Below, piece by piece: positions 25,940-60,709 of a DNA stretch of 64,000 bases. The position numbers and the translations under genes were made by a program. Positions within the stretch are counted from its first letter, which is position 1. Each line of letters starts with the position of its first letter. Origin of the DNA: an uncultured Eubacteriales bacterium (GTDB lineage Bacteria; Bacillota; Clostridia; Christensenellales; Aristaeellaceae); the NCBI GenBank assembly GCA_900315315.1, contig OMYT01000019.1, positions 18,645 through 82,644 of the forward strand, in the 5' to 3' direction. The notes beneath the pieces are model-generated. The model searched no databases. It was not told the DNA's origin and worked only from the letters and a program-made list of their open reading frames with translations.

Positions 25940-26043
25940 CCGAAGGGGTCAAGGGGGGTTCGCAGCGCCCGGAAATAGAGCCAGTGGCTCTATTTCAGCG
26001 GAGAACGGGCGGCAGCCCCGGGCACTCGGAAAGCCCCCTTATT
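25940..26043 (+). repeat. structured repeat, copy R1
   Basis: Starts with CCGA and ends with CCCCCTTATT. Inner hairpin: GAAATAGAGCC (25972-25982) with GGCTCTATTTC (25986-25996) around AGT. A second helix joins AAGGGGG (25951-25957) to CCCCCTT (26034-26040). Its stem sequences differ from other copies but remain complementary. The last codons and stop of the convergent HAD gene lie inside it. Confidence 0.85.
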
Positions 26044-26862
26044 CATTTCCTCGATCATTCTGCCGACCCCGTCCTCATCATTCCCCGGGGCGATCCGGTC
26101 AGCGGCGTCCTTTGCCGCCTGGACCCCGTTCTCCATCGCCACCCCGATTCCGGCCGTGCGGATCATGCTCAGGTCGTTGGAGCCGTCCCCGAAGGCGGCA
26201 GCCGCTTCCGTCCCGATCCCCAGATAATCGCATAAAGCCTGCAGCGCCGCCCCCTTGTTCGCCCGCCCGTCATTGATTTCGATGTTCCGGGCGATCGATG
26301 AGGTGACCGCCAGCTGCGGGAACCGCTCCGCCGTCTTTATCATCACGAACTCCTGGATCTCTGCAGTTTCACAGAAAGCCTGGATTTTCTGTACGGCCTT
26401 TCCTTCTGTGCGGATGCGCTCCTTCAGATCCGGCACGGGCTTGCGCAGCGCCAGGATCATCTTCAGGTAGATCGGGCTCGGCGCGTAGCGGTCAGCTTTC
26501 TTCAGCATCTCCGCCGTCATATAGGCCTGTCCGTCCTGATAGCAGTCATAGATTGCCGGAAAACCGTCCAGCCAGGTCATGACCTCCAGCGCCGTCTCCT
26601 GCGGAATCTCCGCACGGTACAGTATCCGGTCCTCTTCCCTGTCGTATACAGCCGCGCCGTTGGCCAGGATCAGATAGCGGATGAAGGAAAGATCCCGGAT
26701 CTCTTCCGGAAGGCCGGTATAGATCCTCCCCGTAGCCGGCACGATGAAGATCCCCGCCTCCGCCGCTTTTTCCATGGCATTCCTGTTCCGTTCCGTCAGC
26801 CGCTTGTCCGTCGTCAGCAGCGTCCCGTCCAGATCCATCGCGATCAGTTGTATTTCACCCAT
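25990..26862 (-). CDS. Cof-type HAD-IIB phosphatase
   Basis: 290 residues. The nucleophile motif is MDLDGTLL (Asp10, Asp12). The cap is of type C2B, and the late motif is AFGDGSNDLSMI followed by GVAMENG, as in Cof/YbjI-type sugar phosphatases. It should dephosphorylate a sugar phosphate or a coenzyme-like phosphate. The last 16 residues or so (from NKGAFRVPGAAARSPLK) are encoded by repeat R1, so the natural C terminus may have been replaced. The amylosucrase gene lies upstream on the same strand, separated by R2. Confidence 0.87.
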   Translation of the reverse strand: MGEIQLIAMDLDGTLLTTDKRLTERNRNAMEKAAEAGIFIVPATGRIYTGLPEEIRDLSFIRYLILANGAAVYDREEDRILYRAEIPQETALEVMTWLDGFPAIYDCYQDGQAYMTAEMLKKADRYAPSPIYLKMILALRKPVPDLKERIRTEGKAVQKIQAFCETAEIQEFVMIKTAERFPQLAVTSSIARNIEINDGRANKGAALQALCDYLGIGTEAAAAFGDGSNDLSMIRTAGIGVAMENGVQAAKDAADRIAPGNDEDGVGRMIEEMNKGAFRVPGAAARSPLK

Positions 26863-26886
26863 AACCAGCCCTCAAAACCATTCCGA

Positions 26887-26986
26887 CCGAAGGTCCAGGG
26901 GTTCGTCGCGCCCGGAAAACTGTCCAGTGGACAGTTTTCAGCAAAGAACGGGCGGCAGCCCCGGGCACTCGGAAAGCCCCCTTATT
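26887..26986 (+). repeat. structured repeat, copy R2
   Basis: CCGA start, CCCCCTTATT end. Inner hairpin GAAAACTGTCC (26915-26925) with GGACAGTTTTC (26929-26939), loop AGT. The outer helix is weakened here to four G-C pairs (CCAGGGG against CCCCCTT). The amylosucrase stop (26982-26984) lies in its 3' end. Confidence 0.85.
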
Positions 26987-28829
26987 CAAACCTGTGACAC
27001 AACCACCTGAATCCTCCGGCCGGCACCTTCACCGCCCCGGCGTCTCTGACCGTCCCGTCCATCAGATCCGTGTATTCTTTCTCATCCCGCAGCCAGGCTG
27101 TCGCGTCCTCGCTTCCGAAGTTGAACAGGGCCAGGATCTGCTCTTTCCGGTAATACCGGCCGATCCCCACGATGTGGTTGTTCCCCGTGTCCAGGATCCA
27201 TGTATCCGCCTCCGTGTCAAAGGCGGCATGTTCCGCGCGCTGCGTTTCCAGTTTCCTGATCGCGGTGAACACACGCCCCTCCGGAGTATCTTCCCTTGTC
27301 CTCAGTTCGGCTTTGGTCCAATCCATGTTTCCGCGGTGCAGATACCGGCTGTCCTCCCGCTTCAGCGGATCGTCGTGGTATGCGTTGTCGTTTTCCTGGG
27401 CAATCTCGTCCCCGCTGTATAGCACCGGCACTCCGCTCAGCGTGAAGATGAACGCGTGCAGCATAATGTCCAGCCGGATCGCTTCCTCCATGGCCAGTTT
27501 GTCCCCGCTCTCCCGGGCGGACTCTATTCCGCACAGGGAGGCTGTCGTGCCGCACAGGCGCGCGTCCCCCAGCCGCGGGTCATCGTTGTACAGTTCGCCC
27601 CGTGCCGGACTGTCCGGCCATTTTCCCGTCAGGTAGTTGTTCAGGAACCGCTTATGCGGGATCTCCTCCTGACCGAACTGCCGTAGGAAATCATAGTCCA
27701 GTCCCCAGCCGATATCGTCGTGGCAGCGCAGATAGTTGAGGAACGTGTATGCCTTCGGCAGCGAGAATACCTGCTGCAGCTGATGCGTCAGCAGCCGCAC
27801 ATCCCGTGACGCCACCGTATGCCAGATTGTCGCCATCGTGGTTACGTTGTACAGCAGATGGCATTCCGGCCTCTCCACCGTCCCGAAGTAAGGCGCCACC
27901 TTGCTGGGCTCCATCACGACCTCGCCCAGCAGCAGCGTGCCGGGGCAGACGATTTCGCAGACAATCCGCATCATCCTCACCAGCGAATGCACCTGTCTCA
28001 GATTCCGGCAGGTTGTCCCCAGCGTTTTCCAGATATACGGCACTGCGTCCAGCCGGATAATATCAATCCCGTTGTTGCACAGGAACAGCATGTTCTCCGT
28101 CATGTCGTTGAACACCGTGGGGTTGGCGTAGTTCAGATCCCACTGATAGGGATAGAAGGTCGTCATGACGATCTTTTGTGCTTCCTCGCACCAGGTAAAG
28201 TTCCCCGGCGCCGTGGTTGGAAACACTTGCGGCATCGTCTCGTTGTACCAGTTCGGAATACTCCAGTCATCGTAGAAGAAATACCGGTGCTGGAATTCCT
28301 CCTCCCCGGCCCGCGCCCGGCGCGCCCATTCATGGTCCTCGCTGGTGTGGTTCATCACAAAGTCCAGGCAGAGCGCAATGCCGCGTTCATGGCAGTCCGC
28401 CGCCAGTTCCGCCAGGTCCTCCATCGTCCCCAGTTCCGGCTGAACCTTACGGAAATCGCTCACCGCGTAGCCGCCGTCGCTGCGCCCCTCCGGACTTTCC
28501 AGCAGCGGCATCAGGTGCAGGTAATTGAGTCCGCATTCCGCGATGTAGTCAAGCTTTTTCCTGACGCCCTGCAGATTCCCCGCGAACGGCTTCACATACA
28601 TCAGCATGCCGACCATCTCATGGCCCTTATACCAGTCCGGGCATTCTTCCCGGGCCCGGTCCATCATTTTCAGTTTTTCCGGCCTCTCCAGCCACATGCG
28701 ATACAGCATCTCGGTAAAGTAGTCGTAGGCCCCCATATCATTGTGATACAGTTCGCAGTACAGCCATTTCAGCTCGTTCGCGTGCAAGCGGTACCGGATT
28801 GAATATTCTTTCTCCCACGTTTTGTTCAT
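26982..28829 (-). CDS. amylosucrase-like GH13 glucan enzyme
   Basis: 615 residues from the ATG at 28829, which has AGGAGG upstream; the longer frame to 28907 lacks a ribosome site. A helical N-terminal domain (MLYRMWLERPEKLK) precedes the GH13 barrel, as in amylosucrases. Catalytic residues: nucleophile Asp261 in IIRLDAV, acid/base Glu303 in LLGEV, and His370-Asp371 in NYLRCHDDIGWG. VLYSGDEIAQEND and a C-terminal beta domain follow. Amylosucrases (GH13_4) make alpha-1,4-glucan from sucrose or hydrolyse it; no signal peptide is present, so it acts inside the cell. Sucrose hydrolase or trehalose-synthase-like activity cannot be excluded. Confidence 0.83.
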   Translation of the reverse strand: MNKTWEKEYSIRYRLHANELKWLYCELYHNDMGAYDYFTEMLYRMWLERPEKLKMMDRAREECPDWYKGHEMVGMLMYVKPFAGNLQGVRKKLDYIAECGLNYLHLMPLLESPEGRSDGGYAVSDFRKVQPELGTMEDLAELAADCHERGIALCLDFVMNHTSEDHEWARRARAGEEEFQHRYFFYDDWSIPNWYNETMPQVFPTTAPGNFTWCEEAQKIVMTTFYPYQWDLNYANPTVFNDMTENMLFLCNNGIDIIRLDAVPYIWKTLGTTCRNLRQVHSLVRMMRIVCEIVCPGTLLLGEVVMEPSKVAPYFGTVERPECHLLYNVTTMATIWHTVASRDVRLLTHQLQQVFSLPKAYTFLNYLRCHDDIGWGLDYDFLRQFGQEEIPHKRFLNNYLTGKWPDSPARGELYNDDPRLGDARLCGTTASLCGIESARESGDKLAMEEAIRLDIMLHAFIFTLSGVPVLYSGDEIAQENDNAYHDDPLKREDSRYLHRGNMDWTKAELRTREDTPEGRVFTAIRKLETQRAEHAAFDTEADTWILDTGNNHIVGIGRYYRKEQILALFNFGSEDATAWLRDEKEYTDLMDGTVRDAGAVKVPAGGFRWLCHRFE

Positions 28830-28936
28830 GCTGTTCCTCCTCCTGCCCGTCCGTCGGAAAAGAAATGGATTCAAAAGCCGGTTCCCCGGCATATTTGTTT
28901 CATTCATTCTGTATATATGATTGTATCATGAGTGTA

Positions 28937-30034
28937 TCAGTCTTCGCAATACTTAATGGTTGCCGACCCGTCCGGATTCCGAACGTCCGGGTCGGTTCCT
29001 GTCGTTTCCGCCATTTTCTTCAGCACCCGTTCCGCATCCTCTCCCGTCAGCAGGCAGGGGGAGTAATTATTGTGCCGTTTATCGCTGGTAATGCTGATCG
29101 GGTAAAACGTCAGTGCGATCTCCTTCAATTCTCCGTCCTCAAAGCGCAGTTCCGCCCGCACCACCAGCGCGTCGTTATCCTTCGCGAAAGTCGTCCCGCC
29201 GAAGGAGCAGTTACCGAGGCTGTAAACAACCGGCACGTCATCTTTCAGCACCAGGCCCTGCAGCACATGCGGATGGTGCCCGATCACCAGGCAGGAGCCG
29301 GCTTTCACTGCCCGCTCGACAATCTGCGCCTGATAATTGTCCGGCGGGCGGTAGCTGTATTCCGTCCCCGCGTGCATGACCGTGATCACCGCCGCGCAGC
29401 CGAGGTCTCTCAGTTTTTCCGCCTGCGCTGCAAAGCGCTTCGCCCGGTTTCCCGTCAGGGAATAGTTAACCCCGAGAAAACCGATCATCAGGCCTTCATC
29501 GCTCCGCCAGATCGCCGGCGCGTCCACACCGAACCAGCAGATTCCCGCCTCTTCCAGCGCTTTCTTTGTGTCCGCGTATCCTTCGTCCCCGTAGTCATGG
29601 GTATGGTTGTTCGCTACCGTCACGCATTCGATGCTGCCTTCCTTCAGGATCTGCGTGTTGGCCGTCGGTCCGATGAAGTTGAATTCCTTTTTCTCTTTTT
29701 TCAGTTTCCGGTCGCTCAGCACAACCTCCAGGTTCGCAACCGTCAGGTCGTCCGCTTCAGTCAGCTGCTTCAGGCCCCGGAAGGGAAAATCCATCCCGTT
29801 CTCCGCGATCCGGCTGGCGAAACTCAGGGCCTGCCCGGCCTTTTTCTCTTCTCCTCCGAGTGTGCAGTCCCCCAGAAAGGTCATCGTCACAGTGCCGGTA
29901 TATTCGTCGTCCGGAAGTCCGAGCATCTCCGCGGAAACCTCATCCGTCACCGTATACCAGTTCCCGGAAGCCAGACAAAAACACGGAATCATCATGAAAA
30001 TCATGACCCAGGCTGCCATTTTTCTGAACCTCAT
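28937..30034 (-). CDS. CapA family metallophosphatase-like lipoprotein or secreted protein
   Basis: 365 residues from the ATG at 30034, whose GGAG site lies just inside the upstream heptamer-repeat edge; starts at 30049 and 30067 are alternatives. An N-terminal signal segment (AAWVMIFMMIPCFCLASG) precedes the CapA fold: FLGDCTLGG, ANLEVVLSD, VANNHTHDYGDEGY and CLVIGHHPHVLQG. These metal-binding motifs match CapA/YwtB proteins involved in poly-gamma-glutamate export or related surface polymers. No pgsB/C genes are nearby, so the substrate is uncertain. Confidence 0.83.
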   Translation of the reverse strand: MRFRKMAAWVMIFMMIPCFCLASGNWYTVTDEVSAEMLGLPDDEYTGTVTMTFLGDCTLGGEEKKAGQALSFASRIAENGMDFPFRGLKQLTEADDLTVANLEVVLSDRKLKKEKKEFNFIGPTANTQILKEGSIECVTVANNHTHDYGDEGYADTKKALEEAGICWFGVDAPAIWRSDEGLMIGFLGVNYSLTGNRAKRFAAQAEKLRDLGCAAVITVMHAGTEYSYRPPDNYQAQIVERAVKAGSCLVIGHHPHVLQGLVLKDDVPVVYSLGNCSFGGTTFAKDNDALVVRAELRFEDGELKEIALTFYPISITSDKRHNNYSPCLLTGEDAERVLKKMAETTGTDPDVRNPDGSATIKYCED

Positions 30035-30055
30035 CCGCTCTCCACTCATCAGCTT

Positions 30056-30095
30056 TCTACTCTCCACTCTCCACTCTTCACTCTCCAGTCTCAGC
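30056..30095. repeat. heptanucleotide tandem repeat, site 4
   Basis: About five copies of ACTCTCC/ACTCTTC between the YdcF-like and CapA-like genes. On the minus strand it is GAGTGGA-type and precedes the CapA-like start. Confidence 0.85.
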
Positions 30096-30101
30096 TACCC
30101 A

Positions 30102-31571
30102 CTAGCCCAGCGTGGCGGTAAGTATACTGAAGAACACAATCAGCAGAATCAGCATCACCAGCTCCGTCTTCCATCGCTTCTGCAGCAGCCCGATCGTCTC
30201 CCGCATGAAGGCGTTCGGCCAGAACCACCATTTGGTTCTGCTGCCGAGTCCCTCCGCCCGCACGCCGGCTTCCGCCGCCCACAGGCCGCTGCGGAACACA
30301 TGATAACTGGTCGTAGCAAAGGCGATCTTTCCGTCCGGCTGCATCTCCTCCACGATTTTCCGGGAAAAAGCCATATTCTCAAGCGTCGTCCTGGACTGAT
30401 CCTCCATCCGGATATACTCCTCCGGAATTCCCTGTTCCAGCAGATAGCGTTTCATCGCTTCCGCCTCGGGCATTACCTCGTCCTTCCCCTGCCCTCCGGA
30501 GGGGATCAGGATCGCCGTCCGGCCGTTTTCCTCCCGCTGTTTTTTCCAGAAGGCAATGGCGCGGTCCACCCGCCCCCGCAGCAGCGGAGGCAGCGTTCCG
30601 TCCTTGCGGAAGCCGCACCCGAGAATAATGATGAAATCCTTGTCCGGTTCCGGAATCATCTTCGGCGCCAGCAGGCCGCAGATCACCGCGCCTGCCAGCA
30701 TACATTCAAGGTAGACAAATACCGTCGCGTAAACATTCTGGAAAACATTTTCCGCCCGTCCGACCCATTCCGGCCCGGGAAGATCCCGGTTAAGCAGCAG
30801 CCAGCCGATCACCTCACCGAGAATCATCGCAACACCGATCCCCAGGCCCAGTATGTTCTGGATCCGCGGCCGCTCGTGTCGCAGCAGCGCAATATTGCTG
30901 ATGATCATCGCCAGGGCAAAGCACAGCACCAGCGGAGCCGTCAGCATCATAAACTGCCAGGGAGCCGACGCGATCGCCGAGTATGCGTTCATCATTGTAA
31001 AACCGACCGGGTTCACTATATGCCGGAGCGTCAGGTTCAGCATCACCACGCCGGTCACCAGGGCAAAAATCGAAAACCCCGAGAAGTAGAGCGACATATA
31101 ATCATAGAAGTCAGATCCCCTGATCTGCCGGAAGCTCCACGCCATGATCGCCCATAGCAGCAGGCTGAACACCGTGAAAGCGATCATCACCGCCGTGTCC
31201 CCGGTGAATCCGCCGGTGCTTGTATCATATACCGTTTTGTCCCGGCCGACCTTCAGTTCATGTTGCGCAACCACGTTTCCTTCCCGGTCCAGCACGTTCA
31301 GGGTGGTATCCCCCTTCTGCCCCGGGCGGATCGGCACCCGCAGATAGCCGTCCTTCACCTGCGGCGTTCCTTCCAGGATCACTTCCTGTCCTTCCGCCTC
31401 CACCCGCAGTTCATCCGCCCGTTCAACAGCAGTCTCCGGCAGGGGGATCACCGCGTAATAGGTATTCTTCACCGTCAGGCGGCAGACTACACAGAACACC
31501 AGCAGGATTCCTGCGATGACCGCCATCTGTTTGACCGCCTGTCTCATAAGCCTTGTCCCCTTCCGCTCCAT
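30102..31571 (-). CDS. YdcF/ElyC-like (DUF218) membrane protein
   Basis: 489 residues from the ATG at 31571, which has GGGGAG upstream; the open frame upstream runs through a heptamer repeat and the helicase gene. One N-terminal membrane segment, an extracytoplasmic beta domain (about 30-130), then five to six membrane helices. The cytoplasmic DUF218 domain follows with DFIIILGCGFRKDGTLPPLLRGRVDRA, PSGGQGKDE, MEDQSRTTLENM and TTSYHVFRSGLWA. A last helix ends the protein. DUF218 proteins act in envelope homeostasis (ElyC, SanA); the exact reaction is unknown. The extra extracytoplasmic domain is unusual. Confidence 0.82.
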   Translation of the reverse strand: MERKGTRLMRQAVKQMAVIAGILLVFCVVCRLTVKNTYYAVIPLPETAVERADELRVEAEGQEVILEGTPQVKDGYLRVPIRPGQKGDTTLNVLDREGNVVAQHELKVGRDKTVYDTSTGGFTGDTAVMIAFTVFSLLLWAIMAWSFRQIRGSDFYDYMSLYFSGFSIFALVTGVVMLNLTLRHIVNPVGFTMMNAYSAIASAPWQFMMLTAPLVLCFALAMIISNIALLRHERPRIQNILGLGIGVAMILGEVIGWLLLNRDLPGPEWVGRAENVFQNVYATVFVYLECMLAGAVICGLLAPKMIPEPDKDFIIILGCGFRKDGTLPPLLRGRVDRAIAFWKKQREENGRTAILIPSGGQGKDEVMPEAEAMKRYLLEQGIPEEYIRMEDQSRTTLENMAFSRKIVEEMQPDGKIAFATTSYHVFRSGLWAAEAGVRAEGLGSRTKWWFWPNAFMRETIGLLQKRWKTELVMLILLIVFFSILTATLG

Positions 31572-31593
31572 CTTCTCCCCCCGTGTGCATCCC

Positions 31594-31629
31594 GAGCTCT
31601 CCACTCTCCACTCTTCACTCTCTCTTACC
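31594..31629. repeat. heptanucleotide tandem repeat, site 5
   Basis: CTCTCCACTCTCCACTCTTC and flanks, between the helicase 3' end (stop at 31625-31627) and the YdcF-like start. Confidence 0.82.
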
Positions 31630-34012
31630 GTCTCCACCTTCCGCTGCCGCGGCCGTTCCCGTGGCAGCTGTCGCACAGCCGGTACGGCCAGTTCCACGGC
31701 AGATGCCGCCGGCAGGAAGGGCAGGTCCGCTGCTGCAGCTTCTGGGTGGACAGGATGTGCACGATCCCCCGGGAAATCAGATCCTTCCGTCGCTGGATCT
31801 CGTCCATCAGCTCCTCCGGTTCCGGCAGGAACAGCCGTGTATAGTTGTAGTACAGGTCACATCTCCGGTAGTCCGCCTCCATCGCGTCCAGCATCCGGAT
31901 CGTGCAGCTCTCCGGGTCCAGGATTTCCGGCATCTCCGGAATCACGTCGATATGTTCTCCCCGGCACTCGGCATGGTACATTGCCTTCCATCGGCCCAGC
32001 AGGTCGGGATCCTTTTCGTCGAAAGGAATGCAGATAAACCGGTACAGCAGCTGCCGGTCGGTTTTCGGCGTTTCCATCATCTCCGCCAGTTCCGCCATCC
32101 GCACCGTCGACGCCTTTGAGAAACACCCTTTGTCCTGCATCCGCAGCCACTGATCCAGGATCTGCGTCAGCGGCAGGGGGATGCCCAGCAGGGAATCCGG
32201 AAACCCGATCACGCCCTCGACCAGCGGCAGCAGCGGCCGGGCCAGCGCCCGCGCGACCTCTTTCCGGAATCCGAAGGCGTTCACATAGCCGATCTCGTAT
32301 TTTCCGTACCGCCCCGCCCGTCCGGCGATCTGCTTGATTTCCGCATCCGTCAGCAGTCTGACCATGTCCCCGTCAAACTTTTCATTTTCCAGAAACACGA
32401 CCCGCTGGATCGGCAGGTTCATTCCCATGGCGATCGCATCCGTCGAAACGACCACCTCCGTCTCGCCCTTCATGAAGCGGTCCGCCTGGTTCCGCCGCAC
32501 GTCCGGCGGCAGTGCCCCGTAAATCAGGGAAACCTTGTATCCCCGGGTCTTCAGTTCCGCTGCTACCGCATGCACCCGCGCCTTGGAAAAAACGATCAGT
32601 GCGTCTCCCGGCTGCACGGAGTTCGGAAACTGGAATCCGACCGTCTCGACCTCCAGCGGCGTCATCCGCTCATGCCGGATCACCGTCAGCTCGTCCCCGC
32701 ATTCTTCAATAATCCTGGTCAGCAGCTGCTCCGCGTCCGGCGACGCGCAGGCGTGGATTTCCTCCGCGCACAATCCGAGAATGGCCGCCGTCCAGGCGCC
32801 GCCCCGGTCCCGGTCCGCGATCATCTGACATTCGTCGATCACTGCCACGTCATACCGGGTTTTCAGGTCAGCCATTTCCACCGTCGATGACTGGACGCGG
32901 CTGAAGGGAACCCGGATCTGCTCCTCTCCTGTCACCAGCGAGCAGGGAACATCGTCCAGATTCAGTGCCTCAAACTGCTCCGCAGCAAGCAGCCGCAGCG
33001 GCCCGAGATAGACCCCGCACTCCGCGCCGTGCAGGCGCTGCACGCCCTCGTAGGTCTTTCCGGAGTTAGTCGGCCCCAGGTGTAGATAGAAATGACGTTT
33101 CATCTGCCGGGCCAGCGGATAGAGGTCCCGGTAATGCTCGGGGATCGCATCCAGCAGCGCCGCGCGAATCTGCTTCTCCCGCTGCCAGACTGCATCTGCT
33201 TCCTTCTGCAGGCGGATCAGTCCCGGGTTCTTTTCCAGCAGCCGCCGGATCCGTTCCCGGGAAAACTTCTTTTCCAGCGCATTCAGGATCATCCGGCCGC
33301 TCCGCTCCGCCTCCCGGCGCACCGCGTTGGCCACGGTCTCGCCCGATGGCAGTTTCACGTTCCGGCAGGCCGCGAGCTCCGGCATCGCCTTCCCCGCTTC
33401 ATTGCGCAGGAAGGATCCCAGGGATCCCGGCTGAAACGCCCGGTTCACCGCCTTGTGCGTCAGCCCGCCCGGGAAACCGGTTTCCATCACCCGGCGGATC
33501 ACAAAGCGTTCCCCCTCCGGATCCCCGAGCCGCGCCGCCTGGTCCCCGGTCCGCAGCCACAGAACCACCCGGTTCTCCGCCCGGTTGGTCAACTGTCCGA
33601 TGTTGTCGTCAAAAAATTTCCGAAGTTCTCCGTCCCGGACGATTCTGCGGGCTTCATAAGCCTTCTCCAGTGAAACCCGGCTCTTCTCCACCGTCCGCAG
33701 AAACGCGAGGTCAATCTTCCTGCCGGCCTTCCCTTCGGCTTCGATCAGCTTTTCCAGACGATCAAATTCCGCCCGGTCCCCGCTGAGAACCAGTTCGCCC
33801 CGCAGCAGGCCCTGCCATACCCGGTCCCGCCGCTGCAGCTGCCGCAGCGTGCTCTGAAACGCCTCGCTGTTCAGGTATTCCGCTTTTTCCGCCGCGGACA
33901 TCGCGCGGGTAATCACCCGTGTCTTGTTCAGCGCGTGCTGATACAGCCACCGTTCCCGCTCGGGCAGAACAGCCTGAATATATGCTTCCAGCGCCCTGCT
34001 CTCCCGTTTCAT
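31625..34012 (-). CDS. Suv3-like superfamily 2 helicase with C-terminal zinc ribbon
   Basis: 795 residues. Residues 1-300 are helical and Arg/Glu-rich. The helicase core has Walker A GPTNSGKT (313-320) with the Suv3-type YEGVQRL, the DECQ box (393-396), VSTDAIAMGMNLPIQRVVF and QIAGRAGRYG (motif VI). A SUV3-like C-terminal helical region follows, and the last 30 residues contain CPSC and CDSC, a likely zinc ribbon. Mitochondrial Suv3 unwinds RNA as part of a degradosome; bacterial relatives are less known. Possible role in RNA turnover or structured-RNA unwinding. The long N-terminal region appears to be lineage-specific. Confidence 0.82.
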   Translation of the reverse strand: MKRESRALEAYIQAVLPERERWLYQHALNKTRVITRAMSAAEKAEYLNSEAFQSTLRQLQRRDRVWQGLLRGELVLSGDRAEFDRLEKLIEAEGKAGRKIDLAFLRTVEKSRVSLEKAYEARRIVRDGELRKFFDDNIGQLTNRAENRVVLWLRTGDQAARLGDPEGERFVIRRVMETGFPGGLTHKAVNRAFQPGSLGSFLRNEAGKAMPELAACRNVKLPSGETVANAVRREAERSGRMILNALEKKFSRERIRRLLEKNPGLIRLQKEADAVWQREKQIRAALLDAIPEHYRDLYPLARQMKRHFYLHLGPTNSGKTYEGVQRLHGAECGVYLGPLRLLAAEQFEALNLDDVPCSLVTGEEQIRVPFSRVQSSTVEMADLKTRYDVAVIDECQMIADRDRGGAWTAAILGLCAEEIHACASPDAEQLLTRIIEECGDELTVIRHERMTPLEVETVGFQFPNSVQPGDALIVFSKARVHAVAAELKTRGYKVSLIYGALPPDVRRNQADRFMKGETEVVVSTDAIAMGMNLPIQRVVFLENEKFDGDMVRLLTDAEIKQIAGRAGRYGKYEIGYVNAFGFRKEVARALARPLLPLVEGVIGFPDSLLGIPLPLTQILDQWLRMQDKGCFSKASTVRMAELAEMMETPKTDRQLLYRFICIPFDEKDPDLLGRWKAMYHAECRGEHIDVIPEMPEILDPESCTIRMLDAMEADYRRCDLYYNYTRLFLPEPEELMDEIQRRKDLISRGIVHILSTQKLQQRTCPSCRRHLPWNWPYRLCDSCHGNGRGSGRWRR

Positions 34013-36103: not shown

Positions 36104-36106
36104 ATG

Positions 36107-40397: not shown

Positions 40398-40517
40398 CCG
40401 AAGGTCCAGGGGTTCCGCACGCCCGGAAAACGGGCCAGTGTGCCCGTTTTCAGTAAGGAACGGGCGGCAGCCCCGGGCACTCGGACAGCCCTGGTCGCGC
40501 CCGCAGGCGCGAAATCC
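40398..40517 (+). repeat. structured repeat, copy R3
   Basis: Inner hairpin GAAAACGGGC (40426-40435) with GCCCGTTTTC (40442-40451), loop CAGTGT. Outer helix CCAGGG with CCCTGG. Tail hairpin TCGCGCC (40495-40501), loop CGCA, GGCGCGA (40506-40512). Lies between the BatA-like and DUF58 genes; the DUF58 stop is directly adjacent. Confidence 0.87.
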
Positions 40518-42394: not shown

Positions 42395-42491
42395 CCGAAG
42401 GTCCAGGGGTTCCGCACGCCCGGAAAACGGGCCAGTGTGCCCGTTTTCAGTAAGGAACGGGCGGCAGCCCCGGGCACTCGGAAAGCCCTGG
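42395..42491 (+). repeat. structured repeat, copy R4
   Basis: Inner hairpin GAAAACGGGC (42423-42432) with GCCCGTTTTC (42439-42448), loop CAGTGT. CCGA (42395-42398) and TCGG, CCAGGG and CCCTGG form crossed outer helices. No tail hairpin. It encodes the C-terminal 15 residues and the stop of the coiled-coil membrane protein gene. Confidence 0.87.
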
Positions 42492-48312: not shown

Positions 48313-48409
48313 CCGAAGGTCCAGGGGTTCCGCACGCCCGGAAAACGGGCCAGTGTGCCCGTTTTCAGTAAGGAACGGGCGGCAGCCCCGGGCACTCGGA
48401 AAGCCCTGG
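48313..48409 (+). repeat. structured repeat, copy R5
   Basis: Same as R4 in its inner hairpin (GAAAACGGGC, CAGTGT, GCCCGTTTTC) and outer helices CCGA/TCGG and CCAGGG/CCCTGG. No tail hairpin. Lies upstream of the operon head and downstream of the zinc-ribbon gene. Confidence 0.87.
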
Positions 48410-50587: not shown

Positions 50588-50716
50588 CCGAAGGTCCAGG
50601 GGTTCGTAGCGCCCGGAAAACTGTCCAGTGGACAGTTTTCAGTGAAGAACGGGCTTCAGCCCTGGGCATTCGGAAAGCCCTGGTCGCGGCCGCAGCCGCG
50701 AAATCCTCCCCCTTAT
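50588..50716 (+). repeat. structured repeat, copy R6
   Basis: Inner hairpin GAAAACTGTCC (50616-50626) with GGACAGTTTTC (50630-50640), loop AGT. Outer helices CCGA/TCGG and CCAGGG/CCCTGG. Tail hairpin TCGCGGC, loop CGCA, GCCGCGA (50684-50701), then CCCCCTTATT. One of the two full-length copies, between two divergent genes. Confidence 0.88.
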
Positions 50717-54145: not shown

Positions 54146-54179
54146 CTCTCTTTTCCTGTATCTTGTTCTCTAATGTCAT

Positions 54180-54330
54180 CCGAAGGTCCAGGGCAAAGGC
54201 GCCAGTGGGTTCGTAACGCCCGGAAAAAGAGCCGGTGGCTCTTTTTCAGTGGAGAACGGGCGGTAGCCCTGGTTTGTTGGGAGGGCAGGAAAGCCCTGGT
54301 CGCGGCCGCAGCCGCGAAAGCCCCCTTATT
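54180..54330 (+). repeat. structured repeat, copy R7
   Basis: Inner hairpin GAAAAAGAGCC (54223-54233) with GGCTCTTTTTC (54237-54247), loop GGT. Tail hairpin TCGCGGC, CGCA, GCCGCGA (54300-54317), then CCCCCTTATT. Contains extra bases in two places (CAAAGGCGCCAGTGG and TTTGTTGGGAGGGC), and the TCGG partner of CCGA is missing. Lies between convergent genes; the mnmG stop is at its end. Confidence 0.85.
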
Positions 54331-56182
54331 TTCTTTTTTGCTTTTCAAGCCAAACGGAAAGCACCGCCACATCCGCCGGATTCACTCCCGGAATCCTGCT
54401 GGCCGCCCCCAGGCTCACCGGTTTCTGCCTGTCCAGCTTCTGCCGCGCCTCCAGCCGCAGATGTTCGATCTCCGCGTAGCAGATCTCCGGGCTCAGCTTT
54501 GTCTCTTCCATTTCCCTTGCCCGCCGGATCAGGTTCTCCTGCTTTTCCAGATACCCGGCATATTTCACCCGGATCTCCGCCTGTTCCGCCGCCTGGGCCG
54601 ATACTTCCGCCCAATCCGGATGCAGCCCCGCCAGATCCTTCAGCCTGATTCCCGGCCGCTTCAGCAGGTCCTCTGCCTTCTGGCTCCCGGCGGTTTCCGG
54701 CTCTCCCTTTTCCCGCAGCAGCCCGTTCAGCGCTTCTCCCGGCGCGAACCGCGTTGTCTGCAGTTCCTGAATCAGTCTCTCTGTTTCTTCTTCCTTCTTC
54801 CGCGTCCGTTCCAGCCGCTCTTCCCCGGCCAGCCCGGCCCGGTAGCCGATCTCCGTCAGCCGCAGGTCCGCGTTGTCCTGCCGCAGATACAACCGGTGCT
54901 CGGCCCTCGAAGTCATCATCCGGTAAGGTTCGTCCGTTCCCTTCGTGGTCAGGTCGTCCGTCATCACGCCGATATAGGCCATGTCCCGGGTCAGGATGAT
55001 CTGTTCCCGCTCATGCAGCTTCAGCGCCGCGTTCATCCCGGCCAGGATACCCTGGCACGCCGCTTCCTCATATCCGCTGGTGCCGTTGATCTGTCCGGCG
55101 AAGAACAGCCCGCCGATCCGCAGGCTCTCCAGCGTCGGCCGCAATTCCCGGCTGTCGATGCAGTCATATTCGATCGCGTAGCCCAGGCGGGTAAACTCGC
55201 ACCGCCGCAGCCCCGGGATCGTCCGGTACATGGCCCATTGCACGTCCTCCGGCATGGAGGTGCTCATGCCCTGCACGTACCATTCCCGGCTTTCCTTCCC
55301 TTCCGGTTCCATGAAAATCTGGTGCCGCTCCTTATCCGCAAAGCGCACCACCTTGTCCTCGATGCTCGGGCAGTACCGCGGCCCGATCCCGTGGATCTTT
55401 CCGCTGTACAGCGGCGCCCGGTCCAGGTTGTCCAGGATAATCCGGTGGGTCTCCGGCGTTGTCCATGTCAGGTAGCAGCTGTAGGTGTTCTCCAGCTTCC
55501 GGTCCGTCAGGAACGAGAAAGGCACCACCGGCTCGTCGCCTTTCTGCTCCTCCATCTCGTCAAAGTCGATCGTCCGCACATCGACCCGGGCCGGCGTGCC
55601 GGTCTTGTACCGCCGCAGCTCAAAGCCCAGTTCCCGCAGGCTCCCGCTCAGCTCCGCCGCGTTCATCAACCCCTGCGGACCGCCGTCGTGCCGGTGCTCG
55701 CCGATGATGATGCTGCCTTTCAGGTATACGCCCGTCGCAGCGATCACCGCCCGGCACGGGATCCTCGCCCCCGTCACCGTGGTCACCGCCGTCACGTTTC
55801 CGTTCTCCGTCTCGATGGAGGCGGCCTCTCCCTGCCGCACGGTCAGTCTTTCCGTGGTCATCAGAGCCCTGCGCATCCGGTTCTGGTAGGCCTGTTTGTC
55901 CGCCTGCGCGCGCAGGGAATGAACCGCCGGGCCTTTGCCCGTGTTCAGCATCCGGCTCTGCAGAAATGTATCGTCGATCGCCAGGCCCATTTCCCCGCCC
56001 AGCGCGTCCAGTTCCCGCACCAGGTGGCCCTTGGCGCTCCCGCCGATCACGGGATTGCAGGCCATCAGCGCGATTCCGTCCATGTTCAGTGTCAGCAGAA
56101 GTGTATCGATTCCCATCCGCGCCGCCGCCAGTGCCGCTTCACACCCGGCATGGCCCGCGCCGATTACAACAAGATCAGGCAT
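54326..56182 (-). CDS. mnmG: tRNA uridine 5-carboxymethylaminomethyl modification enzyme
   Basis: 618 residues, the usual length. FAD site [19 protein letters not shown] (5-23), then [16 protein letters not shown], a variant of the canonical [25 protein letters not shown]-like [49 protein letters not shown]-like [18 protein letters not shown], and the C-terminal MnmE-binding helix region are present. With MnmE it makes cmnm5U34 in tRNA. Unusually, its ATG overlaps by 8 bases the end of a gene for a secreted Ig-repeat protein. mnmE, rsmG or jag are not adjacent. Confidence 0.93.
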   Translation of the reverse strand: [618 protein letters not shown]

Positions 56183-58331
56183 TTTCGCTTACTCTCATCA
56201 CTTGATTTTTCCCCAGTCCGTCTCCGCCGGGTCCGTATCCCGGTCCGTATCCGGGCCCGTATCCCGGCCCGGGCTGCGGTGTCTGGTAATACATCACCGG
56301 GTTGATCCATTGCCGCGGAACCCGCTCGGTCTCCGGAATGGTCCAGCTGATGCCGTCCGCGTCCTTCCATCCGGTCACCGTCAGGATCACCATCCCCAGC
56401 TCCCGGTCGATCACGTAGTTCTGGAACCGGAAGCACCCGTGCACCGTTCTTTCCCGCGGCAGCACTTCAAAGGGGTAATACCCGTTGAAACTGCAGCTTT
56501 CGCCGTCCGTGTTGCAGATCATCGGCGCGCCGTCCATATCGTAGCATTCGATCGTATAGTAGATGTTCTGCAGCGTGATGTCCTCGGTCATGTTCCGCAG
56601 CACGATTTTGATCTGGTTCGCCGCGTTCACTTCCAGGCCTTCCGCCATCACCGCCTCGTTGAAGTTCCCGACCCGTACGTCCGCCGTGGCTGTGAATCCG
56701 CCGTCCTCCGTGTAGGCCGTGATCGTCGTTCTGCCTCTCCGGCGGCCCTCCACATGCCCGGTGCTCGTACCGTTGGAGCGGACCGACGCGATCCCCTCGT
56801 CCATCGAGGACCACATCACTCTCTGGTTGTTGGCGTTCCGGGGCTGCACCACGGCGCGCACATTCCCGCTCCAGCCCAGCTGCACATAGTACAGCGGTTT
56901 CTGCATTTCCACGCCCGTCACCGGCTGGATCACCGTCACCTTGGTCGCCGCCCGCTTCTTCGTCGCGTCCTGCGCCGTTGCGTAGATGGTCGCCGTTCCG
57001 CGGCTGACCGCCGTCACGACGCCGTTCGCGTCCACCGTGGCGATCTTCGGGTGCGCGCTTTTGAAGGTCACCGCCGTGTCCGTCGCATCGTCCGGCTCCA
57101 CGGTCCACTGCAGCTGTGTCTGCTCCCCGACCCGGAGGCTCAGTGCCTCCTTCGGGGTCGTAAATTCAATCTTTGTCACCAGCTGGCTCACGATCACCTT
57201 CGCACTGGCCGTGATCTCCGGGTTCGTGTTGCTCGCGCAGGTCACGGTGCAGGTACCGGCCTTCACCCCGGTGATTCTCCCGTTCACTGCCGTCGCGATG
57301 CTGTTGTCCGAGCTGGACCAGGTCACGCTCTTGTCGCTGGCGTCCGCTGGATATACGGTTACCTTCGCCTGCGCGCTCCGTCCCGTCGTCACCGCAATCT
57401 CCGCCGGCGTGACCGTCAGGCCCGTCACCGGCTGGATCACCGAGATGGTGATCATTCCCTTCGCGCCGGATCCGTCCGCCGCCACGGCGTTGATGACGGC
57501 ATTCCCGCGCTTCAGCCCGGTCACGACGCCGTTCGCGTCCACACTGGCGATCTGTGGGTTTTTGGATTCCCATCTCACTCCTTTGATCGAGGCATCCTCT
57601 GGCTGGCATTCCGCCGTCAGCTGAATCGTTTCGCCGCTGGCCACGGTTTTTCTCTCCGCGGATACGGTGACCGCTTTCACCGGCTGGGTCACCACGATCG
57701 TGTAGGTCTCCTCGGCGTCCGGGTTGTCGGCGCTGGTCAGGGTCAGTTCGCACTGCCCCCGCTGCACCGCCCTGAGCACCTTGTTGTTCACCACCCGCGC
57801 CACCCCGGCGTCGGAGGTGGTGTAGATGACCTTGGTGTTGCTGGCGTCCGGCGGGGTGCATACGGCGCCCAGGTTGACGCTCGCTCCGGCGGCCAGCGGG
57901 ATCACCCGGTATTCGGATGCCGCCAGCAGCAGCTCGTCCACCGCCGGATCGCTCAGCTCGTATACAGTCAGCCCGGACGTGTTCAGCGTTACCTTGGTCA
58001 CCGTGCGGAGAACTTTCACCGCCATCTCACATCTGCCGACCCGTTTTCCCTTGCGGATCAGGGAAGCATAGACCTTGGCGTCCCCCTTGCTGACCGCGGT
58101 CACCGTTCCGTCCTCGCTGATGGAAACGATCTCCGGTTTGCTGCTGGAGTATTTGATCTCCCCGTCGCCGTCGTAAACGCCTTCGCGCCGCAGCGTTGTT
58201 GCAAAGGTTTCGCCTTCCTTCAGCGTCACAGCCTTTTCCGTAAACAGGAAAACGCCCGCCGCCATCGCAGGCACAACCGCCAGCAGGCACATAACCGCCG
58301 TCAAAAGCGCCGCCGTGATCCTTCTGCTCAT
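56175..58331 (-). CDS. secreted protein with bacterial Ig-like (Big_2) repeats
   Basis: 718 residues from the ATG at 58331; the frame is open further, without a ribosome site. A signal peptide (ITAALLTAVMCLLAVVPAMAA) is followed by five to six Ig-like Big_2 domains, recognisable by repeated ASVDANGVVTGL- and ATVDANGVVTAV-type strands and TWSSSD. A C-terminal beta domain and a PGPGYGPGYGPGYGPGG tract end the protein. No LPXTG or membrane anchor is visible, so it may be secreted or bound to the wall. It ends inside the start of mnmG. Its own promoter region is not distinct. Confidence 0.8.
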   Translation of the reverse strand: MSRRITAALLTAVMCLLAVVPAMAAGVFLFTEKAVTLKEGETFATTLRREGVYDGDGEIKYSSSKPEIVSISEDGTVTAVSKGDAKVYASLIRKGKRVGRCEMAVKVLRTVTKVTLNTSGLTVYELSDPAVDELLLAASEYRVIPLAAGASVNLGAVCTPPDASNTKVIYTTSDAGVARVVNNKVLRAVQRGQCELTLTSADNPDAEETYTIVVTQPVKAVTVSAERKTVASGETIQLTAECQPEDASIKGVRWESKNPQIASVDANGVVTGLKRGNAVINAVAADGSGAKGMITISVIQPVTGLTVTPAEIAVTTGRSAQAKVTVYPADASDKSVTWSSSDNSIATAVNGRITGVKAGTCTVTCASNTNPEITASAKVIVSQLVTKIEFTTPKEALSLRVGEQTQLQWTVEPDDATDTAVTFKSAHPKIATVDANGVVTAVSRGTATIYATAQDATKKRAATKVTVIQPVTGVEMQKPLYYVQLGWSGNVRAVVQPRNANNQRVMWSSMDEGIASVRSNGTSTGHVEGRRRGRTTITAYTEDGGFTATADVRVGNFNEAVMAEGLEVNAANQIKIVLRNMTEDITLQNIYYTIECYDMDGAPMICNTDGESCSFNGYYPFEVLPRERTVHGCFRFQNYVIDRELGMVILTVTGWKDADGISWTIPETERVPRQWINPVMYYQTPQPGPGYGPGYGPGYGPGGDGLGKNQVMRVSENA

Positions 58332-58433
58332 TCTCTTCCCTTCCTTCCGTTTAACAACCGGTATTCTACCATATTCCATCTTTACTGCCAATAATAACGC
58401 CGAATAAGCTCTGTTTCTTTCCCTTTACCCAAT

Positions 58434-58458
58434 AAAAAAACGCCTTTCGGCGCTTTTT
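58434..58458 (-). terminator. terminator after ireB
   Basis: On the minus strand, stem CGCC, loop GAAA and stem GGCG are followed by seven T residues. It begins immediately after the ireB stop. Confidence 0.78.
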
Positions 58459-58461
58459 GAT

Positions 58462-58725
58462 TCACTCCAGCGGATGCGTTTCCAGATAACTCCTCACCAG
58501 CTCCTCCAGAATCTCATCCCTTTCAAGCCGGCAGATCAGGCTCCGCGCGGAATTATAGCTGGTAATATAGGTCGGATCCCCGGTGATGAGATACCCGACC
58601 AACTGCGTGATGGGATCATACCCTTTGGCCAGAAGCGCCTGGTAAACATACATCAGGATGTCGTGCGCCTCATTCCCGGTCCCCGTGATCGGATTCATCT
58701 TCATGGTGTTGAACGTTTCTTCCAT
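58462..58725 (-). CDS. ireB: IreB family regulatory phosphoprotein (UPF0297)
   Basis: 87 residues, full length. The sequence [39 protein letters not shown] and [16 protein letters not shown] is diagnostic of IreB/YrzL. IreB is phosphorylated on N-terminal threonines by the PASTA kinase IreK in Enterococcus and affects cephalosporin tolerance. The candidate residues are in the TFNTMKM start. The usual ruvX neighbour is absent; the gene has its own promoter and terminator. Confidence 0.92.
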
Positions 58726-58756
58726 GCCGGTCCCCCCTCTGTTTTCCGCTTTTTGT

Positions 58757-58786
58757 ATTATACAGCATTTCCCCTGTAAAACACAA
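58757..58786 (-). promoter_or_regulatory. promoter of ireB
   Basis: On the minus strand, TTGTGT (58781-58786), 18-base spacer, TATAAT (58757-58762). Confidence 0.6.
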
Positions 58787-58807
58787 GGTTTTTTTTGGCT
58801 TTTTTAC

Positions 58808-58837
58808 TTGCTTCACCGCCTCTTTTCCATGTATAAT
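58808..58837 (+). promoter_or_regulatory. promoter of glnS
   Basis: TTGCTT (58808-58813), 18-base spacer, TATAAT (58832-58837), 50 bases before the glnS start. Confidence 0.7.
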
Positions 58838-58886
58838 ATCTGAAGTTCGTCATGCGACGACATCCGGAGAAAAGGAGCCTGACTTT

Positions 58887-60617
58887 ATGGAAAATGTCAA
58901 TCCTGAAAAAAACACTTCAGAAAATGTCACTTCAGAAGAAACCAATGCCCGCAGCAATTTTATCTGGGACGCGATCGACCGGGATCTGGAGGATAAGCGT
59001 TACACCGAGGTCCATACCCGTTTCCCTCCGGAACCGAACGGATATATGCATATCGGCCATTGCAAAGCCCTGATCATGGACTTCCTCACCGCCGAGAAAT
59101 ACGGCGGCAAGTGCAACCTGCGCTTTGACGATACCAACCCCGCCAAGGAGGATACCGAGTATGTCGAAGCCATCAAGCGGGATATCCACTGGCTGGGTTT
59201 CCACTGGACCGGCGGCGAGTTCTATGCCTCCGATTATTATGACAAGTGCTATGAAATCGCCGAGGACTGGATCCTCCGCGGCCTGGCCTATGTGGACGAG
59301 CTCAGCAAGGAAGAGATGCGCGAGTACCGCGGCACCCTCACCGAGCCCGGGAAAAACTCCCCCTGGCGGGACCGCCCCGCGGAGGAAAGTCTCGACCTGT
59401 TCCGCCGCATGAAGGCCGGCGAGTTCCCGGAAGGCAGCAAAACCCTCCGCATGAAAATCGACATGGCCTCCCCGAATATCGTCATGCGGGATCCGGCCAT
59501 GTACCGCATCCTGTACAAGGAACACTGGCGCACCGGGAACAAGTGGTGCATCTATCCCATGTATGACTTCTCCCATCCCATCGGCGACGCCCTCGAAGGC
59601 ATCAGCCATTCGATGTGCTCCCTCGAGTATGAAATCCACCGCCCCCTCTATGACTGGGTGGTGGAAAAGGCCGCCAACATGCTCCCCGCTCACCCCCGGC
59701 AGATCGAGTTCTCCCGCCTGAATATGACCGGCACCGTCATGTCCAAGCGCTACCTCCGCCAGCTGGTGGAGGGCGGCCACGTAGCCGGCTGGGACGATCC
59801 CCGTATGCCCACCCTTTCCGCCATGCGCCGCCGCGGCTATCCCGCCCTGGCCATCCGGAACTTTGTGGACACCATCGGCATGAGCAAGGCGGATTCCGTC
59901 GTGGATTACGCCGTCCTGGAGCACTGCGTCCGCGATGTCCTGGGGGAAACCTCCCTCCGCGCCATGGCAGTCCTGAATCCCCTGAAGGTCGTTCTCACCA
60001 ACTGGCCCGAGGGCGAAACGAAAACCGTCACCCTCGAAAATCATCCGGATCATCCCGAGCTCGGCACCCGGCAGGTTTCCTTCGGCCGCGAGCTGTATAT
60101 CGAACAGGATGACTTTATGGAGATCCCCGTCAAGAAGTATCAGCGGATGTTCCCCGGCAATGAGGTCCGCCTTAAGGGCGCCTACATTGTCCGCTGCGAC
60201 GGCTGCGTGAAGGATGCCTCCGGCAGCATCGTTGAGGTCCGCTGCACCGTGGACCTGGATTCCTTCTCCGGCAGCCCAGGGGCCGACCGGAAAATCAAGG
60301 GCAAAACCCTGCACTGGGTTTCCGCCGGGGACTGCATCCCCTTCGAGGCCCGTCTTTACGAGCCCCTCCTCAATGATGATCTCGATGACGAGCAGGCGGA
60401 AGCCGACAAAAAGGATTTCATTTCCCGCCTGAATCCCGAAAGCCTCGTTGTCCGCCGCGGCTTTGCCGAAAAGGTCATCGCCGATGCGGAACCCGGCGCC
60501 ACCTTCCAGTTCCTGCGCACCGGTTATTTCTGCAAGGATCCGGATTCCACCCCCGCCCTCCCCGTCTATAACCGCACCGTCGGTCTGAGGGACACTTTCG
60601 CCAAACAAGTCCGCTAA
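58887..60617 (+). CDS. glnS: glutaminyl-tRNA synthetase
   Basis: 576 residues. Class I motifs: PPEPNGYMHIGHCK (HIGH) and GTVMSKRYL (KMSKS-like MSK). The GlnRS-specific anticodon-binding beta barrels follow, with CDGCVKDASGSIVEVRC and the LHWVSA stretch. It charges tRNA-Gln directly. Many Bacillota lack GlnRS and use GatCAB, so the gene is a lineage marker. AAAGGAG is upstream of the ATG. It is followed directly by gltX. Confidence 0.95.
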   Translation: MENVNPEKNTSENVTSEETNARSNFIWDAIDRDLEDKRYTEVHTRFPPEPNGYMHIGHCKALIMDFLTAEKYGGKCNLRFDDTNPAKEDTEYVEAIKRDIHWLGFHWTGGEFYASDYYDKCYEIAEDWILRGLAYVDELSKEEMREYRGTLTEPGKNSPWRDRPAEESLDLFRRMKAGEFPEGSKTLRMKIDMASPNIVMRDPAMYRILYKEHWRTGNKWCIYPMYDFSHPIGDALEGISHSMCSLEYEIHRPLYDWVVEKAANMLPAHPRQIEFSRLNMTGTVMSKRYLRQLVEGGHVAGWDDPRMPTLSAMRRRGYPALAIRNFVDTIGMSKADSVVDYAVLEHCVRDVLGETSLRAMAVLNPLKVVLTNWPEGETKTVTLENHPDHPELGTRQVSFGRELYIEQDDFMEIPVKKYQRMFPGNEVRLKGAYIVRCDGCVKDASGSIVEVRCTVDLDSFSGSPGADRKIKGKTLHWVSAGDCIPFEARLYEPLLNDDLDDEQAEADKKDFISRLNPESLVVRRGFAEKVIADAEPGATFQFLRTGYFCKDPDSTPALPVYNRTVGLRDTFAKQVR

Positions 60618-60620
60618 GTG

Positions 60621-60709
60621 CCGAAGGTCTCCAAAACGTGATCGGACCGAAGGTTTCCAAAGGGCGGTCGGAAAGCCCTTTGGTCGCTCCCGCAGGAGCG
60701 AAATCCCCA
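60621..60709 (+). repeat. structured repeat, short copy R8
   Basis: A reduced copy without the inner hairpin. CCGA (60647-60650) and TCGG (60668-60671), and CCAAAGGGC (60657-60665) and GCCCTTTGG (60675-60683), form crossed 4-bp and 9-bp helices, an H-type pseudoknot order. Tail hairpin TCGCTCC, CGCA, GGAGCGA (60684-60701). A partial extra CCGAAGGT unit precedes it. Lies between glnS and gltX. Confidence 0.82.

What the first reader, a model, noticed from the sequence alone, without database searches (positions are those of the whole stretch)
25940..60709. Eight-copy structured repeat with covarying stems and pseudoknot order
Eight copies (R1 25940, R2 26887, R3 40398, R4 42395, R5 48313, R6 50588, R7 54180, R8 60621) share CCGAAGGT at one end. 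The inner hairpin is GAAATAGAGCC/GGCTCTATTTC in R1, GAAAACTGTCC/GGACAGTTTTC in R2 and R6, GAAAACGGGC/GCCCGTTTTC in R3-R5, and GAAAAAGAGCC/GGCTCTTTTTC in R7: both arms change together. The tail hairpin covaries too: TCGCGCC/GGCGCGA (R3), TCGCGGC/GCCGCGA (R6, R7), TCGCTCC/GGAGCGA (R8), each around CGCA. The outer helices CCGA/TCGG and CCAGGG/CCCTGG (CCAAAGGGC/GCCCTTTGG in R8; AAGGGGG/CCCCCTT in R1) occur in the order a-b-a'-b', which is a pseudoknot. This is not a family I know by name.
Basis: seen in the sequence. Interest (0 to 1): 0.88.

Follow-up and report, generated by a model that had tools for sequence, protein, structure and literature searches.

The report
Nested folded repeats tracking replication direction
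A bacterial genome carries hundreds of small non-coding DNA repeats that fold into a knot, nest inside one another and almost all point the same way relative to DNA replication, which suggests an undescribed kind of mobile element whose mover is unknown.

Summary
The repeat has two modules. Module A (31-43 nt) is an H-type pseudoknot, CCGA..S2..TCGG-AAA-S2'; 74 distinct minimal copies show 25 different S2 arms and a second S1 type, GCGA/TCGC. Module B (about 65-75 nt) sits in A's junction; its helices P1, P2, P3 and one internal-loop pair covary. A further CGCCC/GGGCG helix is not supported. Copies follow replication, not transcription: 74 of 76 intergenic copies lie on the G-poor strand, orientation switches with GC skew inside one contig, and 25 of 26 agree in two other species. 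Module B also occurs in Clostridia, viral contigs and Rhodobacterales, with empty sites, and had one polarity inside host repeats (27:0 and 57:0), but no strand rule there. Rfam has no match over threshold. No Y1/RAYT gene was found in 9 of 11 other carriers searched. Best reading: non-autonomous mobile elements, recognised as a folded single strand and inserted with replication-strand polarity. Mover and intermediate (ssDNA or RNA) are not shown.

The parts
25940..26040 (+). R1: module A (S2 AAGGGGG/CCCCCTT) with module B inserted; P2 GAAATAGAGCC/GGCTCTATTTC
26887..26981 (+). R2: module A (weak, chimaeric S2) with module B; P2 GAAAACTGTCC/GGACAGTTTTC at 26915-26939
40398..40494 (+). R3: module A (CCAGGG/CCCTGG) with module B
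40495..40512 (+). R3 tail hairpin TCGCGCC-CGCA-GGCGCGA
42395..42491 (+). R4: module A with module B, no tail hairpin
48313..48409 (+). R5: module A with module B, no tail hairpin
50588..50683 (+). R6: module A with module B
50684..50701 (+). R6 tail hairpin TCGCGGC-CGCA-GCCGCGA
54180..54299 (+). R7: module A carrying a third module (CAAAGGCGCCAGTGG..TTTGTTGG) with module B inside it
54300..54317 (+). R7 tail hairpin TCGCGGC-CGCA-GCCGCGA
60647..60683 (+). R8: minimal module A, H-type pseudoknot CCGA..CCAAAGGGC-gg-TCGG-AAA-GCCCTTTGG
60684..60701 (+). R8 tail hairpin TCGCTCC-CGCA-GGAGCGA

Best explanation
These are non-coding, non-autonomous mobile elements made of nested modules. Module A is a 31-43 nt H-type pseudoknot with an optional tail hairpin. 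Module B is a unit of about 65-75 nt: P1; an internal loop with what read as tandem G.A mismatches, one extra covarying pair and the conserved strand CGCCCG; P2; then a P3 hairpin with a GGCA-type loop. Shown: the folds are conserved while the stem sequences change; most copies lie between genes; module A and what it carries are placed by replication strand, not by transcription, in four species; module B is present or absent at otherwise equal sites and has one polarity inside its host repeat. Inferred: a mobilising activity recognises the folded single strand and inserts it during replication (a fork-exposed single strand, or a copy of an RNA), and module B enters G-rich stretches of other structured repeats by the same logic. 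The activity itself was not found.
For: Structure. High copy. Replication polarity: 46 of 47 module-B copies in the own stretches; 74 of 76 intergenic copies; flanking-gene arrangement of the copies, aa 46, sa 11, as 10, ss 9, is like that of all gaps, aa 78, sa 12, as 17, ss 13; switch inside contig C168; 6 of 6 places in the 3.26-Mb contig of G044; 25 of 26: G038 13 of 14, G004 12 of 12. Empty against filled sites: IS5-type transposase gene; TCGAACG repeat; CCTTCCCC repeat: 31 empty, 27 filled, 11 loci holding both. Fixed polarity: (27:0 and 57:0). Spread. Flanking genes in the window: 10 proteins searched, 7 with Pfam matches, of differing families.
Against: No mobilising enzyme and no autonomous copy were found. 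Outside the window's genus module B shows no strand rule against local GC skew: other Clostridia 65 to 52, Rhodobacterales 11 to 6, viral 4 to 6. Which strand folds is not settled: the internal-loop pair gives G.T 20 against A.C 4 in 163 copies, alignment A1 gives 15 against 11 (12 against 5 if P3 is counted only where it forms), P2 gives 5 against 0 in one filter and 4 against 2 in another, S2 gives no preference. The strand exposed as lagging template is the one these counts do not favour. The shared IS5 site in several Rhodobacterales could be one old insertion, multiplied by the IS. No two strains of one species could be compared.
Confidence: 0.55

Rival explanations
1. A SINE-like retroelement: the reader's strand is an RNA, folded and reverse transcribed by a resident reverse transcriptase, and the cDNA is placed at replication forks, which gives the strand rule.
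For: A reverse transcriptase domain is present in G000, G004 and G038, which have many copies, and was not found in G001 and G002, which have none of the exact core.
Against: G044 has six core copies and G101 (the Pseudodonghicola genome of L117) has four module-B copies, with no RVT_1 match. By my reading of the translations the RTs are of different kinds, and no complete copy of the repeat lies in the fetched loci around them. No transcript data.
Confidence: 0.2
2. A replication-linked signal kept by selection on one strand (priming, fork polarity, segregation), not placed there by its mover.
For: Strand rule of 93-100% in four species.
Against: The exact core runs from 0 to 128 copies within one genus, with near-complete relatives having none; stem sequences vary; copies carry diverse inserts; module B lies in viral contigs and inside a transposase gene.
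Confidence: 0.12
3. REP/BIME sequences moved by a Y1 (RAYT, TnpA-REP) transposase, or IS200/IS605 derivatives.
For: Short folded intergenic repeats; insertion by replication strand is known for IS608 and ISDra2 (PMC6006769: start of abstract in the listing, passages); no clear target duplication.
Against: No Y1 match in 9 of 11 other module-B genomes (completeness not told) and only partial matches in G000, two of them beside what I read as a TnpB gene. Y1 genes of relatives stand next to different repeats in the loci read. GT[AG]G guide absent in 74 of 74 copies. Genomes without the core also carry Y1, and some with it do not.
Confidence: 0.08
4. Cis-acting RNA of the flanking genes (riboswitch, attenuator, terminator, mRNA stabiliser).
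For: Compact pseudoknot with an A-rich third loop, as in small riboswitches (recalled).
Against: Flanking genes in the window are unrelated; 46 of 76 intergenic copies are antisense to both neighbours and orientation ignores gene direction; only 4 of 74 copies have TTTT within 8 nt.
Confidence: 0.05

Closest known systems
REP/BIME/REPIN sequences with RAYT (TnpA-REP) transposases
   Same: Short, folded, mostly intergenic repeats, up to hundreds of copies, non-autonomous
   Different: No GT[AG]G guide in 74 of 74 copies, no Y1 gene found in most carriers searched, pseudoknot core, one orientation per replication strand
IS200/IS605-family elements and their non-autonomous derivatives
   Same: Insertion tied to replication strand; structure recognised rather than inverted repeats; no clear target duplication
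   Different: No Y1/TnpB partner found for these ends; nested modules; the strand exposed as lagging template is the opposite of the one favoured by the wobble counts
BOX elements of streptococci (recalled)
   Same: Dispersed intergenic repeats built of combinable structured modules
   Different: Different sequences and folds by recollection, not compared here; here one module also occurs in other repeats and in another phylum
Small H-type pseudoknot riboswitches such as preQ1-I (recalled)
   Same: Same topology of module A: short S1, A-rich third loop, S2 of 6-11 bp
   Different: No Rfam match over threshold, no common gene context, antisense to most neighbours
Group IIC introns and IS110/IS1111 elements that target structured repeats (recalled)
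   Same: Insertion with fixed polarity into folded repeats
   Different: Module B is only about 65-75 nt

Membership tests
REP/BIME (RAYT system) | GTAG or GTGG guide 0-2 nt 5' of the hairpin (PMC6006769, passages) | tested here: not met
   0 of 74 minimal module-A copies on either strand
REP/BIME (RAYT system) | Y1 transposase gene in the genome, flanked by the repeat | tested here: not met
   G000 (89% complete): three partial Y1 matches only, two at C49 beside what I read as TnpB, the third a 20-position piece at a contig end. 2 of 11 other module-B genomes have Y1 (their loci were not scanned for the repeat). Y1 loci of genus relatives: of the 19 scanned, only L272 has core-like matches (one exact CGGAAAGCCC, S2 not checked) and it lies in the G038 stretch where copies were already known; four read in full carry other repeats
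IS200/IS605 non-autonomous derivative | Replication-strand orientation bias | tested here: met
   Module A in four species; not seen for module B elsewhere
IS200/IS605 non-autonomous derivative | Ends shared with an autonomous TnpA element | tested here: inconclusive
   No larger element with these ends in the loci held at that time, but the scan left out distances under 31 nt, so longer pairs could be cross-pairs of minimal copies, and it covered only fetched stretches
Known structured RNA family | Match to an Rfam 15 covariance model at gathering score | tested here: not met
   Window: 0. 8 further loci: only a tRNA and a glycine riboswitch, not the repeat. In 5 loci at E up to 5 there are 6 matches, all far below threshold; three overlap repeat copies on the opposite strand (BASRCI153 twice, 20.5 and 18.4 bits against 137; PhotoRC-I once, 16.8 against 45)
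Cis-regulatory RNA | Constant position and sense orientation to a gene class | tested here: not met
Intrinsic terminator | Hairpin followed by a T run | tested here: not met
   TTTT within 8 nt after S2' in 4 of 74
Retroelement (SINE-like) | RNA intermediate | not testable with these tools
   no transcript data; RVT_1 presence does not match copies in all 9 genomes tested

The most novel reading that the evidence does not exclude
A mobile-element system that spreads by recognising a folded single strand without a Y1/HUH transposase: pseudoknot carriers are laid down on one strand at replication forks, and a second module enters their loops, and those of several unrelated repeats, in a single polarity. 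The second module has passed between Clostridia and Rhodobacterales.
Probability: 0.3. Interest if true: 0.88.

Novelty: new variant of a known kind. Interest (0 to 1): 0.72.

Why it matters
Short repeats are common in bacteria but the movers of most are unknown. This family gives a sharp handle: a conserved pseudoknot, a near-absolute replication-strand rule in four species, empty and filled sites with fixed polarity, and carriers in which the usual Y1 transposase was not found. It makes the question 'what moves structured repeats without RAYT' testable, and it shows a non-coding module of about 70 nt shared by Clostridia and Rhodobacterales.

Tried and rejected
CGCCCG pairing with the downstream CGGGCG as a second pseudoknot: CGCCCG is unchanged in 145 of 158 module-B copies while its would-be partner varies; paired cells 72.1% against 71.7% in shuffles (44 of 500 shuffles reach it). 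The P3 hairpin explains the 3' side better, although in alignment A1 only 75.8% of P3 cells pair, partly because some rows (Paracoccus type) are out of register.

Mini-intron or bypass element, suggested by module B lying inside an IS5-type transposase gene in several Rhodobacterales: copies in Rhodobacter sp. CZR27 have further damage (an extra stretch of about 40 residues with a stop, and a later frame change), so the interrupted IS was probably moved in trans.

Resident RAYT as mover: negative. Reverse transcriptase as mover: not decided. Autonomous larger copy: none seen. Empty sites upstream of what I read as pyrH in genus relatives: too diverged for exact junctions; of 13 loci that came in readable orientation, only that of G009, from which the query came, shows the element; 17 others came reversed and were not read further. 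Target motif upstream of module A: weak A-rich preference only (26 copies). Strand by wobble in S2: no signal.

Literature: searches and the exact-sequence one search (text of the held library only) gave no description; the one hit is a glioblastoma paper with a 12-letter match. I saw search listings, and passages of PMC6006769; no paper was read whole.

Dropped before counts: the copy in L249 failed my context filter and was not counted. In one search, 14 of 90 matches overlapped predicted genes (11 on the G-poor strand, 3 not) and were left out of the 74 of 76; of the two exceptions one (window 39783) lies inside a predicted gene and looks like chance, the other is L034, where the skew is weak. 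In one search, 6 matches passed; two (38630 and 55952, both +, against the rule) lack the junction and S1 by eye and I count them as chance. Other short-motif matches, in both orientations, did not pass the filter. The scanner also returned many chance matches in genes and was not used for counts. In one search a faulty script gave zero and was replaced. Alignment A1 uses 48 of 180 rows, chosen by loop letters that also fix one P1 pair. In one search the search for opposite polarity used patterns of set form, so odd copies could be missed.
Full report
What is there. The window (G000:C104:18645-82644) holds seven long copies and one short copy of a repeat, all on the + strand. The long copies are composite. 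The short one, R8 (60647-60683), is the core: CCGA-AGGTTT-CCAAAGGGC-GG-TCGG-AAA-GCCCTTTGG followed by a tail hairpin. This is an H-type pseudoknot: S1 CCGA/TCGG, S2 CCAAAGGGC/GCCCTTTGG, third loop AAA. I call it module A. In R1-R6 the short junction between S2 and S1 is replaced by module B; in R7 a third module sits between.

Is it more than chance. TCGGAAAGCCC occurs 226 times in the held genome against 5 for the reversed pattern, and CGCCCGGAAAAC 55 times against 0. Of the 100 genomes searched as relatives (G000 among them), 31 have the 15-base core GCGATCGGAAAGCCC, in 5 of 53 genera; 27 of the 31 are in the window's genus, where numbers run from 0 to 128.

Module A structure. 74 distinct minimal copies with a perfect S2 show 25 S2 arms, among them CCAGGGC, GCGAGGGC, TGTGGGGGC, CTGAGGGGC, CCAAAGGGC and CCGGAGGGC, each with its complement; a perfect S2 was a condition of this count. 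In the looser count S2 was also required, so S1 is the fair test: four Watson-Crick pairs in 53 of 256 hits, against 0 to 2 at six shifted positions. Among hits with NCGA and NCGN arms, the outer S1 pair is C-G 56 times, G-C 10 times and G.G once. The G-C copies come from L056, L066, L079, L106, L124, L153 and two viral contigs (L161, L164), so the number of independent changes may be small. At the inner end S1 is less strict: copies with CCGA/CCGG (A opposite C) occur (7).

Module B structure. 194 distinct hairpins were collected and 158 with enough flank were tested. P1 of at least four pairs is present in 132 of 158 against a shuffle mean of 41.8 (maximum 54); without GTTC-type copies 63 of 86 against 7.5 (maximum 15). 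On a gap-free alignment of 48 rows, the structure P1+P2+P3 with one extra pair beats all 500 shuffles on every measure. The extra pair (base before CGCCCG with base after AG) is G-C 115, A-T 21, G.T 20, A.C 4, others 3 in 163 copies. It sits next to what reads as tandem G.A mismatches (CGAG/CGAG; inference from the sequence). The alternative helix CGCCC/GGGCG is not supported.

Replication polarity. The + strand of the window is G-poor (mean skew of sixteen 4-kb blocks about -0.125, one block slightly positive) and 35 of 48 predicted genes lie on the - strand. In the own stretches held at that time 46 of 47 module-B copies lie on the G-poor strand, as do 74 of 76 intergenic copies of either module. 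Of 100 listed places of TCGGAAAGCCC (out of 226), 98 agree with the majority of their contig. In contig C168 the GC skew changes sign near 175 kb and the copies I accept change from - (8658, 28113) to + (245743, 257401) (two further + matches are discussed under what was dropped). In G044, whose main contig is 3.26 Mb, four places are + where the skew is negative and two are - where it is positive (my scanner missed one of the six, which is known). In G038 13 of 14 and in G004 12 of 12 copies agree. Gene direction does not explain this: the mix of flanking-gene arrangements around the copies is like that of all gaps in the same stretches, and all 8 copies between two lagging-strand genes keep the replication orientation. 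Against a general rule: module B in other Clostridia, Rhodobacterales and viral contigs shows no such bias (65 to 52, 11 to 6, 4 to 6).

Mobility. Module B is present and absent at the same place in four settings. (1) An IS5-type transposase gene: L049, L050, L083 and L086 carry it between AAGG and GTTCGG (or a close form), where ISSpo9, ISPpa8, ISPko3 and a Phaeobacter copy have four other bases. (2) The repeat AAAATCGAACGCAGGGACGGTTCC..CGTTCGATTTT: filled twice in L186 of G044, empty in L186 and L279. (3) The repeat CCTTCCCCTTCAGGGG-AAGGTGG: filled in L143, empty in L130 and L088; overall 27 filled and 31 empty, with 11 loci holding both; in 11 of the 27 the host sequence GGTGG resumes where my pattern expected it, in 16 it did not match. 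(4) Module A itself. In the filled cases found, module B has the polarity of its host: 27 to 0 and 57 to 0. It follows a run of G in most of the copies printed. No target duplication is evident, but a repeat of one to four G cannot be excluded.

Spread. Seven viral contigs carry it; a looser pattern gives 24 stretches, some of them chance. Three Rhodobacterales plasmids match by blastn and no phage record does. In 398 genomes drawn across the window's phylum only G000 has real copies with the looser pattern; two other matches do not form the hairpin.

What moves it. A Y1 (PF01797) gene is found in 28 of 45 genus genomes, including G001, G002, G023 and G035, which have none of the module A core, and is not found in G040, G031 and G036, which have it (several are incomplete). 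G000 has only partial Y1 matches: two pieces beside what I read as a TnpB gene and a 20-position piece at a contig end. Nine of eleven other module-B genomes have none. Y1 genes of relatives stand beside their own repeats, for example GTTGACAGAGGGACGGGG..TGTCAAC. So the RAYT model is not met. Reverse transcriptase domains occur in 5 of 9 genomes tested, not matching copies in all.

Conclusion. Best supported is a family of non-autonomous mobile elements recognised as a folded single strand. These two pointers are not yet reconciled. The family has no Rfam match over threshold and I found no description in the searches named. I rate it a new variant of a known kind (dispersed structured repeats), with a fair chance that the mechanism is new.

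Noticed in passing
L273, L275, L279, L280: Y1 genes (open frames of about 250-340 aa) of genus relatives flanked by copies of distinct short repeats with a GGGACGG core (GTTGACA, TCGAACG and GACAAGGGGACGG types): REPtron-like units.
   Followed up: partly
L018, L011, L024, L026: Other modules in the module A junction: a GC-rich one (GCGCTGTCGCGTGCGGTGCGCGAGC...GCGTGCGATTCCTTGCGG), CAAAGGCGCCAGTGGCGCCTTTG (L032), and a long one in L018.
   Followed up: no
L032, L044, and places of G004:C43, G021:C19 and C44, G029:C1: Closely spaced or tandem copies; in L032 and L044 module A and about 20-30 bases of its flank are repeated together.
   Followed up: no
L070, L088, L104, L113, L130, L143 and others: A separate dispersed repeat CCTTCCCC..GGGGAAGGTGGC..GCCGGATGAGG in Clostridia MAGs, host of module B.
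   Followed up: partly
NZ_CP023549.1, six places: IS5-type copies with module B and further damage have multiplied in the plasmid of Rhodobacter sp. CZR27; the record also has an annotated IS5 transposase place.
   Followed up: partly
G000:C49:1-3142 (L046): An element with a Y1 gene matched in two pieces and what I read as a TnpB gene.
   Followed up: no
L225, L226, L228: Reverse transcriptase genes in G038 and in the Paracoccus alkenifer genome that by my reading do not look like group II intron RTs; no family search was made.
   Followed up: no
L013:3026-3065: A very weak PhotoRC-I match (16.8 bits against 45, E 3.1) on the strand opposite to a minimal module A copy; probably chance.
   Followed up: no
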